From the NCBI RefSeq assembly GCF_036013645.1, contig NZ_CP107869.1:5580001-5644000 (forward strand): 64,000 nucleotides of DNA, in the 5' to 3' direction. Source of the DNA: Streptomyces sp. NBC_00490 (lineage in GTDB: Bacteria > Actinomycetota > Actinomycetes > Streptomycetales > Streptomycetaceae). Shown in pieces: positions 56,711-58,619 of this stretch. A program made the position numbers and the translations under genes. The notes below the pieces were generated by a model. It was not told the DNA's origin. It ran no database searches and worked only from the letters and a program-made list of their open reading frames with translations. The stretch's first letter is position 1; the number at the start of each line of letters is the position of its first letter.

Positions 56711-57901
56711 CTACCACATGACCGGCAGCCGCTCCGGGATCCGCTTCATGAACCCCGTCCGCCACACCAGCTGTTCCACCGGAACGGCGAGCGCGAGCCG
56801 GGGCATGCGTTCCAGCAGCACCGCCAGGGCGATCTCGGCGTGCCTGCGGCCCAGCGCCGTGGCGGGGCAGTAGTGCCGGCCGCCGCCGAAGGAGAGGTGC
56901 GCGGCGCTGTTGGCGCGGTCGAGGTCGACGGTGTGCGGGTCGGGGAAGGCGGCCGGGTCGAAGTTCGCGCCCTCGACCAGCACGAGCACCAGCTCGCCCG
57001 CCGCCACCCGCACGTCCCCGAGGACCACGTCCTCCAGTGCCAGCCTCGGCAGCCCGTCCCCGATGGACAGATTGATCCGCAGCAGCTCCTCCACGGCCGC
57101 CGGAATCCGACCGGGGTCCGCGACCAGATCGGCCTGGAGCCCGGGGTGCTGGATCAGCGCCAGCAGGGCCATGGTCAGGAACCCGGCGGTGGAGACGACG
57201 CCCGCCCCGAACATCGTCACGCCGACCGTCGCGAGCATCTCGTCGGTGAGGTGGGCGTAGTCGGGGTCCGTGCGCAGGGCGGCCAGCTCGGCCATCAGAC
57301 CCGCCGTCGCCGGGTCGTCCAGCCGCTCGGTCATGTACGCGATGTCGCGGTCCCAGTTGAGCCGGGCGCCCGTGACCGGACAGGCGGAGTTCATGAACGC
57401 GATGTCCAGGCTCCGCATCAGCCTCGGCGCGTCCTCCTGCGGGATGCCGAGGAGCCGGCAGTGCATCCCGGCCGAGTACGGATCGGCGAAGCCGCCCCGC
57501 AGATCCGCCGGAGCGCCCTCGCGGGCCAGCGCGTCGATCAGCCGGCCGGCGTAGGACCGCATCCACTCCACGAGACCTGGGCTCTTCGGGTTCAGGGCCT
57601 TCAGTACGGCCTTGCGCAGCCCGGCGCCCGTGATGTTCCCCATGTTGTTGACGACCTCGGGCGGGATCGTCAGCGCGTACTGGCGGGGCACACCCGGCGC
57701 CGAGGTGTCCTTCAGGCTGAACCGCGGGTCCTCGAGGACCTGCTTGCAGAGGTCGTACGACGACACCAGCCAGGCCGAGTCGCCGGCGATGGTGCGGACC
57801 CGGCGGACGGGGGACGACCCGCGCAGCTCCTCGACCTCCGCGGGGAGCCGGTCGCCGCGCCAGGTGAACGGGAAGTCGACGAGGGTGTCAGCGGACGGCA
57901 C
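56711..57901 (-). CDS. Cytochrome P450, CYP121-like (mycocyclosin synthase type)
   Basis: The 396-residue P450 has the same length as M. tuberculosis CYP121 and follows it closely by my recollection. Shared traits are IPPEVVNNMGNI near 79-90, SIAF-like DIAFMNSACP (CYP121 Phe168 region), NWDRDI (Trp182), the odd I-helix MFGAGVVSTAG with Ser237 in place of the usual acid-alcohol pair, and the haem loop FGGGRHYCPATALGRRHAEI with Cys345, including Pro after the Cys. The C-terminus reads TGFMKRIPERLPVMW; CYP121 has Gln385-Arg386 where this has Met385-Lys386. CYP121 joins the two tyrosines of cyclo(Tyr-Tyr). GTG 57901 is inside the synthase gene, six bases after GGGAGG. Confidence 0.88.
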   Translation of the reverse strand: MPSADTLVDFPFTWRGDRLPAEVEELRGSSPVRRVRTIAGDSAWLVSSYDLCKQVLEDPRFSLKDTSAPGVPRQYALTIPPEVVNNMGNITGAGLRKAVLKALNPKSPGLVEWMRSYAGRLIDALAREGAPADLRGGFADPYSAGMHCRLLGIPQEDAPRLMRSLDIAFMNSACPVTGARLNWDRDIAYMTERLDDPATAGLMAELAALRTDPDYAHLTDEMLATVGVTMFGAGVVSTAGFLTMALLALIQHPGLQADLVADPGRIPAAVEELLRINLSIGDGLPRLALEDVVLGDVRVAAGELVLVLVEGANFDPAAFPDPHTVDLDRANSAAHLSFGGGRHYCPATALGRRHAEIALAVLLERMPRLALAVPVEQLVWRTGFMKRIPERLPVMW

Positions 57902-58619
57902 CGCGCACCTCCCGCGCCGGCGTGACGATGGCGTGGCCCTGGTTGCGTGAGGCGCGCAGGCCCGCGCCGGGCGCGTAGAGCAGCTCGGCCATCGGCAGCA
58001 GCTGGTGGTAGCAGTTCAGGGAGGACGGCACGCCCAGGACGGCCGGGGTGTCCAGGAAGAGCGGGGCCTCGGCGCAGACGTACGCCATGCAGACCTCGCG
58101 CTGGGCCTCGGTGACGCTCTGCGTCTTCCCGGCGAGGAAGGTGGCGACGAGCTGTTCGCAGGTCGTGCGGAACTCCTCGTCGGTGCCGAGGCGGGCGGTG
58201 AGGTGCTCGTGGAGGTCGCGGTACGCGGGATTGGCGCGGAAGTCCGACATGGCGTGGGCCCGCAGACGGGTGCCGCCGGGGTCGACGGCCCGCACGGCGC
58301 CCAGCACCTTGGCGCGTACGCCGCGCAGGTTCTTCACCGCCTTGCGGCGCGCGTCGTCGGCCGGATAGCCGGAGGCCTCGTACATCTCGGCCACGTGCAG
58401 ATCGGTGTGGACGAAGTCCACCCGCTCGAAGTGGGCGAGCCCCCAGCGGGCCAGGTCCAGGACCCGGCGGGCGGAGAAGTAGCTGTTGCCGGGGGAGACG
58501 CCGATGACGGCGTGGTCGCCGGCGCCGCGGATGACCTCGCAGTGGGGGGTGAAGGGCCGTACCTCGAAGAGGTCGGTGAGGGTGACGTGCTGGATCTCTG
58601 AGACGGTCGCAGTCGTCAA
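57888..58619 (-). CDS. tRNA-dependent cyclodipeptide synthase, NYH subfamily (Rv2275-like)
   Basis: The 243-residue enzyme makes a cyclic dipeptide from two aminoacyl-tRNAs. The nucleophile Ser42 lies in GVSPGNSYFS with Asn45; Tyr180 and Glu184 lie in YVCAEAPLFLDTP; Tyr204-His205 in NCYHQ complete the N-Y-H signature. Basic residues for tRNA lie in DDARRKAVKNLRGVRAK. From memory it matches M. tuberculosis Rv2275, the cyclo(Tyr-Tyr) synthase, over nearly its whole length (for example VPSSLNCYHQ and GLRASRNQGHAIVTP) but lacks most of its N-terminal extension. TTG 58619 is the only start before an in-frame TAA and has no clear ribosome site. The gene overlaps the P450 gene by 14 bases. Confidence 0.93.
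   Translation of the reverse strand: MTTATVSEIQHVTLTDLFEVRPFTPHCEVIRGAGDHAVIGVSPGNSYFSARRVLDLARWGLAHFERVDFVHTDLHVAEMYEASGYPADDARRKAVKNLRGVRAKVLGAVRAVDPGGTRLRAHAMSDFRANPAYRDLHEHLTARLGTDEEFRTTCEQLVATFLAGKTQSVTEAQREVCMAYVCAEAPLFLDTPAVLGVPSSLNCYHQLLPMAELLYAPGAGLRASRNQGHAIVTPAREVRGAVR

What the first reader, a model, noticed from the sequence alone, without database searches (positions are those of the whole stretch)
56711..58619. Two-gene cyclodipeptide synthase + CYP121-like P450 cluster: a mycocyclosin-type pathway in a Streptomyces-like genome
Seen: overlapping genes for an NYH-type cyclodipeptide synthase (Ser42, Asn45, Tyr180, Glu184, Tyr204-His205) and a 396-residue P450 with Cys345, AGVVST in the I-helix, NWDRDI and a C-terminal RIPERLP. 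Known: in M. tuberculosis the adjacent Rv2275 and CYP121 (Rv2276) make cyclo(Tyr-Tyr) and couple its two phenol rings to mycocyclosin. From memory both proteins match along nearly the whole length. Inference: this locus makes cyclo(Tyr-Tyr) or a close relative and oxidises it. The P450 partner usually found with Streptomyces synthases is of other families.
Basis: partly seen in the sequence, partly recalled or inferred. Interest (0 to 1): 0.9.

Follow-up and report, generated by a model that had tools for sequence, protein, structure and literature searches.

The report
Streptomyces gym-type cyclo(Tyr-Tyr) gene pair
Two overlapping genes in a Streptomyces genome encode an enzyme predicted to join two tyrosines into a small ring and a P450 that would link the two phenol rings and likely also attach guanine or hypoxanthine; it is a further example of a gene pair already described in Streptomyces, so it is interesting mainly for comparison with its tuberculosis relative.

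Summary
The synthase has the tyrosine P1 pocket of Rv2275 and passes NCBI's cyclodityrosine synthase equivalog model, so cyclo(Tyr-Tyr) is well predicted. The P450 is 62% identical to CYP121 but 78% to GymB1. A review describes such two-gene "gym" clusters as widespread in Streptomyces; six of them, when expressed, gave mycocyclosin plus guanine and hypoxanthine adducts of cyclo(Tyr-Tyr). So this is a new member of a known kind, and the pairing is not unusual: 80 of 80 fetched relatives of the synthase have this P450 beside it. It is an optional insert beside lysC (18 of 20 relatives read have 178-354 bp there instead). All 16 residues that contact the ligand in CYP121 are identical here to GymB1 and to 112 of 121 fetched relatives, while CYP121 differs at five. 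CYP121 thus looks like the derived outlier, and the window enzyme is expected to be bifunctional like GymB. No product was measured.

The parts
57888..58619 (-). NYH-type cyclodipeptide synthase, predicted cyclo(Tyr-Tyr) synthase, 243 aa, TTG start
   Evidence: PF16715 E 5e-87; NCBIfam NF052540.1 cyclodityrosine synthase 410 bits, cut-off 300; 144/227 identical to Rv2275, P1 motif identical
56711..57901 (-). CYP121/GymB-family cytochrome P450, 396 aa, GTG start, overlaps the synthase gene by 14 nt (57888-57901)
   Evidence: 307/395 identical to GymB1, 268/389 to 8q6x, 244/393 to CYP121
58689..58718 (-). Conserved promoter-like element TTGACG-N18-TAACTT, 99 bp upstream of the synthase start (that it is the promoter is inferred)
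   Evidence: Pattern in 19 of 21 named lysC-site loci; the same sequence in 14 of 60 loci, nearly all with the pair elsewhere in the genome

Best explanation
This is a gym-type two-gene cassette: a synthase predicted to make cyclo(Tyr-Tyr) from two Tyr-tRNAs, and a CYP121/GymB-family P450 that likely turns it both into mycocyclosin and into guanine or hypoxanthine adducts. Shown by sequence: the overlapping genes, the catalytic residues, the Rv2275-identical P1 pocket, the heme cysteine, ligand-contact residues identical to GymB1, a conserved upstream element, and optional presence at a site beside lysC. Inferred from characterised relatives: the first Tyr is loaded from Tyr-tRNA onto Ser42, the second Tyr-tRNA gives a dipeptidyl enzyme that cyclises, and the P450 oxidises the phenols so that they couple to each other (mycocyclosin) or to a nucleobase (guatyromycine-like products). 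The neighbouring two-component genes and lysC-asd are taken not to belong to the pathway.
For: P1 VGVTMLFN and P2 LTFGQLP fit the cYY group of Canu et al. (PMC5816076 passages); NCBIfam cyclodityrosine synthase equivalog; GymB1 is the best solved match at 78% identity; 16 of 16 ligand-contact residues equal to GymB1 and 8q6x; six expressed gym pairs gave mycocyclosin and guatyromycines A and B (PMC10092475 passages); both genes under purifying selection against five relatives (dN/dS 0.22-0.46 and 0.17-0.27); conserved upstream element.
Against: No product was measured. The primary paper on the gym clusters is not held, so I rest on a review and cannot say which GymB gave which ratio of products. 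Cyclo(Tyr-Tyr) synthases of this group also make cYF and cYA (PMC5816076). GymB1 is not the same enzyme (88 of 395 positions differ) and the window does not group with GymB1 in particular. Adducts may be minor or depend on the host.
Confidence: 0.77

Rival explanations
1. Mycocyclosin only, as the first reader reads the Rv2275-CYP121 pair: the P450 couples the two phenol rings and does not use nucleobases in the cell.
For: 62% identity to CYP121 over 393 positions; same clade as CYP121; 11 of 16 ligand-contact residues identical.
Against: Five contact residues differ from CYP121, and all five equal GymB1 and 8q6x; GymB-type pairs gave adducts in six of six expressed clusters as the review words it (PMC10092475).
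Confidence: 0.15
2. Another product: the synthase makes mainly another tyrosine-containing cyclodipeptide, or the P450 does something else to it, such as dimerisation or hydroxylation.
For: Related synthases make 10-29% cYA and 11-18% cYF beside cYY (PMC5816076); P450 dimerases of cyclodipeptides exist and appear in the match list at 165-169 bits (NascB, AspB, NzeB, NasF5053, TtpB1).
Against: The tyrosine pocket motif is complete; dimerases score about 167 bits against 690 for GymB1 and 546 for CYP121.
Confidence: 0.06
3. The response regulator and histidine kinase downstream (54610-56651) are part of the cassette and control it.
For: Same strand, 59 bp after the P450 stop; 19 of 80 named loci have lysC, the pair and both two-component genes together.
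Against: The regulator occurs in 80 of 392 genus genomes and lies beside the pair in 15 of these by comparison with the places; in 20 of 20 read of the other 65 it sits beside lysC without the pair. L034 and L061 have the pair beside lysC without it.
Confidence: 0.02

Closest known systems
gym BGC (GymB1 and other cdps-p450 pairs of Streptomyces; mycocyclosin and guatyromycines)
   Same: Two-gene cdps-p450 layout; P450 78% identical to GymB1 with 16 of 16 ligand-contact residues equal; cYY-type synthase
   Different: Different sequence and subclade; site beside lysC, not seen in the GymB1-like loci; the window pair itself is not known to have been expressed (not searched beyond)
Rv2275-CYP121 of M. 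tuberculosis (mycocyclosin)
   Same: Synthase 144/227 identical with the same P1 motif; P450 244/393 identical, same heme cysteine and Ala233/Ser237
   Different: Leu, Ile, Ile, Met, Lys instead of Met62, Val78, Phe280, Gln385, Arg386
gut/ptm clusters (guanitrypmycins; cyclo(Trp-Trp) with guanine or hypoxanthine)
   Same: Two-gene cdps-p450 layout and related P450s (PtmB 510 bits; L112-L119 61-65% identical); Leu62, Ile78 and Lys386 shared by L112-L119
   Different: Synthase pocket LGVALFF[AS] instead of VGVTMLFN, P450 Ser229 and Ile385 instead of Thr229 and Met385 in L112-L119; L112-L119 are assigned to this type by motif and similarity, not by product

Membership tests
NYH cyclodipeptide synthases, cYY specificity group | Catalytic Ser and the Asn-Tyr-His trio with Tyr and Glu | tested here: met
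   SNYEYH at 42, 45, 180, 184, 204, 205
NYH cyclodipeptide synthases, cYY specificity group | P1 VG[VI]TMLFN and P2 LxFxQLP (motifs from PMC5816076; AlbC pocket positions partly recalled) | tested here: met
   VGVTMLFN; LTFGQLP in the alignment (one P2 position fell in a gap)
NYH cyclodipeptide synthases, cYY specificity group | Cyclo(Tyr-Tyr) as main product | not testable with these tools
   Needs expression
gym cdps-p450 clusters | A cdps and a p450 gene alone, adjacent and co-oriented | tested here: met
   no other biosynthetic gene between lysC and the two-component genes
gym cdps-p450 clusters | P450 closer to GymB than to CYP121 or to cyclo(Trp-Trp)-type P450s | tested here: met
   77.7% GymB1, 62.1% CYP121; 61-65% to L112-L119. 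In the tree GymB1, CYP121 and the window are all in the 88-row clade, and the order inside it is partly open
gym cdps-p450 clusters | Mycocyclosin and guatyromycines as products | not testable with these tools
   Needs expression and LC-MS
CYP121 of mycobacteria (mycocyclosin synthase) | Sequence family: P450 naming convention of more than 40% (family) and 55% (subfamily) identity, recalled | tested here: met
   62.1% over 393 positions
CYP121 of mycobacteria (mycocyclosin synthase) | Ligand-contact residues of CYP121 including Phe280, Gln385 and Arg386 (list from PMC11084333) | tested here: not met
   11 of 16 identical; five differ

The most novel reading that the evidence does not exclude
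The window P450 is of the ancestral, dual-function form, and the tuberculosis enzyme CYP121 is a stripped-down descendant: on the mycobacterial branch the substrate pocket was rebuilt at positions 62, 78, 280, 385 and 386, and nucleobase coupling was given up, leaving mycocyclosin alone. Leu62, Ile78, Ile/Val280 and Lys386 would then mark nucleobase-coupling P450s, and Thr229/Met385 against Ser229/Ile385 would mark tyrosine against tryptophan substrates.
Probability: 0.35. Interest if true: 0.55.

Novelty: new member of a known kind. Interest (0 to 1): 0.27.

Why it matters
As a locus it adds one more pair to a group already known to be widespread. Its value is comparative: fetched Streptomyces, Nocardia and Longimycelium enzymes share one nearly invariant ligand-contact set, and the mycobacterial enzyme CYP121, a drug target, is the lineage that departs from it. 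If the changed positions decide nucleobase coupling, that can be tested in harmless Streptomyces enzymes. The pair also shows how a small cassette with its own upstream element comes and goes at chromosomal sites.

Tried and rejected
Rejected: that the two-component genes belong to the pathway (beside lysC without the pair in 20 of 20 genomes read, of 65 such genomes). Rejected: that the pair is rare or recently foreign in Streptomyces (GC3 0.955 in both genes against 0.92-0.94 in four neighbours, no TTA codon). Led nowhere: the sigma-70 and terminator consensus scan found nothing (the conserved element was found by comparison); no held paper has both 'cyclodipeptide synthase' and 'aspartokinase'; no held paper names GymB1. 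The source strain of GymB1 was not found: no fetched P450 is more than 89% identical to it. No structure was predicted, since a 78% identical one is solved. Limits: the 80 named loci were chosen by CDPS similarity (92 were confirmed, the best 80 kept), so '80 of 80' is no unbiased rate; L083-L111 may repeat species of the named loci; the protein lists show 120 of 669 and 120 of 582.

Full report
What is there. On the minus strand a TTG-started 243-aa frame (57888-58619) and a GTG-started 396-aa frame (56711-57901) overlap by 14 nt. The first is a cyclodipeptide synthase (PF16715 E 5e-87; NCBIfam cyclodityrosine synthase equivalog, 410 bits, cut-off 300), the only CDPS match in the 10.8-Mb genome. 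The second is a P450 (PF00067). The nearest named relatives are Streptomyces (LysC identical to that of Streptomyces sp. WM6386).

Predicted product of the synthase. Aligned to AlbC and Rv2275, its P1 pocket is VGVTMLFN, equal to Rv2275 at 8 of 8 positions, and its P2 is LTFGQLP (one position fell in a gap). Canu et al. (PMC5816076, passages) define a cYY group by such motifs, with 6 characterised of 145 members in 2017, and name the Asn at the eighth P1 position as essential for tyrosine. Their four new NYH cYY synthases, three from Streptomyces and one from Streptacidiphilus, gave 58-71% cYY, with cYF and cYA beside it. Of 120 listed homologues (316 found) 108 have the same P1 motif.

Nearest P450s. 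Among solved structures: GymB1 (8q6z, 690 bits), 8q6x (596), CYP121 (546), 9o4d, labelled 'Cytochrome P450 121' (536), PtmB (510); the next P450 has 198 bits. Identities: GymB1 307/395, 8q6x 268/389, CYP121 244/393. A review (PMC10092475, passages) says that a cdps-p450 locus (gym) is widely distributed in Streptomyces, that six such pairs expressed in S. albus gave mycocyclosin, guatyromycine A (guanine on the phenol oxygen) and guatyromycine B (hypoxanthine in ortho position), and that these P450s are both intramolecular oxidases and nucleobase transferases. The primary paper (Angew. Chem. 2022, e202200377; title seen in a reference list) is not held. CYP121 homologues were counted in 176 of 721 CDPS clusters in 2018 (PMC5767969, passages), and another review notes the homology of CYP121 with nucleobase-transferring P450s (PMC7954767, passages). 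The kind is therefore known.

Distribution. In 392 genomes of the genus, 135 have a CDPS match; by my count of the listed rows 77 nearly full-length places in 75 genomes are at least 60% identical. Of 80 named loci fetched by CDPS similarity (Streptomyces, Kitasatospora, Streptacidiphilus, Yinghuangia, Nocardia, Longimycelium), 80 have the P450 beside the CDPS (in L028 it runs off the contig).

Pocket comparison. A table in PMC11084333 (passage) lists 16 residues at the ligand in entry 3G5H, which I recall to be the cyclo(Tyr-Tyr) complex. At these positions the window, GymB1, 8q6x and 112 of 121 fetched P450s read LTIVVNAFWVTGAIMK. One more (L028) is cut and agrees at the 14 readable positions. 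The other eight (L112-L119), which I fetched on purpose as distant kin and whose synthases have tryptophan-type pockets, read LTIVVNAFWVSGA[VI]IK. CYP121 reads MTVVVNAFWVTGAFQR. Among 157 listed database proteins, 150 keep the gym set and P0083 has one change; the other six are 87-100% identical to CYP121. Of these P0241 and P0242 (87%) have the CYP121 set, P0243 (Mycobacterium ostraviense, 87%) reads LTVVVNAFWVTGAFAR, and P0244, P0245 and P0257 are incomplete or end differently.

Tree. In a quick tree of 96 P450s L112-L119 split off with support 100. CYP121 groups with two Nocardia and one Longimycelium P450 (support 99) inside the other 88 rows; the window groups with L002 (99). CYP121 has a long branch (0.85), and 34 of 93 inner branches are open, so its place inside the clade is unsure. 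Nocardia, Longimycelium and L112-L119 all have Leu62, Ile78, Ile/Val280 and Lys386, so the simplest reading is that CYP121 changed on the mycobacterial branch. That this cost nucleobase coupling is inference: I saw no report either way on whether CYP121 couples nucleobases.

Site. The pair lies between a divergent lysC-asd and a response regulator-histidine kinase pair. Of 80 named loci 21 have the CDPS near lysC; 19 of these also have the two-component genes, L034 and L061 do not. L004 has the two-component genes but its contig ends before lysC would come. The regulator is found in 80 of 392 genus genomes; by comparison, 15 of them have the pair beside it. I read 20 of the other 65, mostly assemblies of few contigs, not a random draw: in 20 of 20 the two-component genes sit beside lysC, in 18 with 178-354 bp between the two gene starts (2244 bp in the window), in 2 (L125, L131) with about 2.5 kb that hold one long frame. 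The L125 frame is a TPR protein with an AAA/STAND-like front part; the L131 frame looks alike but was not scanned. The pair is thus an optional occupant of an accessory site. Whether it was gained once and lost, or gained more than once, is open: the tree needs 3 changes of the lysC label, one of them due to the short contig of L004.

Upstream element. TTGACG-N18-TAACTT lies at 58718-58689 in sense direction. The pattern TTGAC-N16..20-TA-N3-T occurs in 19 of 21 lysC-site loci, each time as TTGACGCTCT...TAACTT about 98-101 bp before the CDPS match; mononucleotide shuffles gave 0.3% per locus. In the other loci long enough to look at (60, which again include L034 and L061; L004 was too short) the pattern occurs in 16, of which 14 (all but L052 and L081) are clearly the same sequence. 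So it goes with the genes rather than with the site. Against a general role: 44 of 60, among them the GymB1-like and the L027-like loci, lack it by this pattern. That it is the promoter is inferred; the standard consensus scan found none.

Selection. dN/dS against five relatives is 0.22-0.46 for the CDPS and 0.17-0.27 for the P450, against 0.09-0.16 for LysC, 0.07-0.17 for the regulator and 0.20-0.52 for the kinase: both genes are kept by selection.

Verdict. A real, well predicted gym-type cyclo(Tyr-Tyr) cassette, a new member of a known kind. Its interest lies in what it says about CYP121, not in the locus itself.

Noticed in passing
L125:4518-6701 (-), L131:4184-6292 (-), L088:2327-3706; compare window 51641-53686 (+): A TPR protein with an AAA/STAND-like front part sits at the same spot between the two-component genes and lysC in L125 (Pfam); L131 has a look-alike frame (not scanned), and L088 has a match to the window's NB-ARC/TPR gene between the CDPS and the lysC side. 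The window's own gene of this type lies at 51641-53686 (FxSxx_TPR 279 bits, cut-off 300). The recR-lysC interval looks like an accessory-gene hot spot.
   Followed up: partly
P0243 (Mycobacterium ostraviense): A CYP121 homologue at 87% identity has a third contact set (Leu62, Val78, Phe280, Ala385, Arg386), so the pocket varies within mycobacteria.
   Followed up: partly
PDB entry 9o4d (with 9o5i): Labelled 'Cytochrome P450 121' but its sequence matches the tryptophan-type P450 of L112 (645 bits) better than the window's (536 bits); the label may mislead.
   Followed up: no
   Followed up: no
   Followed up: no
window 24366-25226 (+): Another P450 match in the window, 33% identical over residues 94-376, in a 403-codon open frame.
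   Followed up: no
L034 and L061: A more distant lineage (P450 75-77% identical) sits in the same spot beside lysC without the two-component genes and without the upstream element by the pattern used: old common site or a second insertion.
   Followed up: partly
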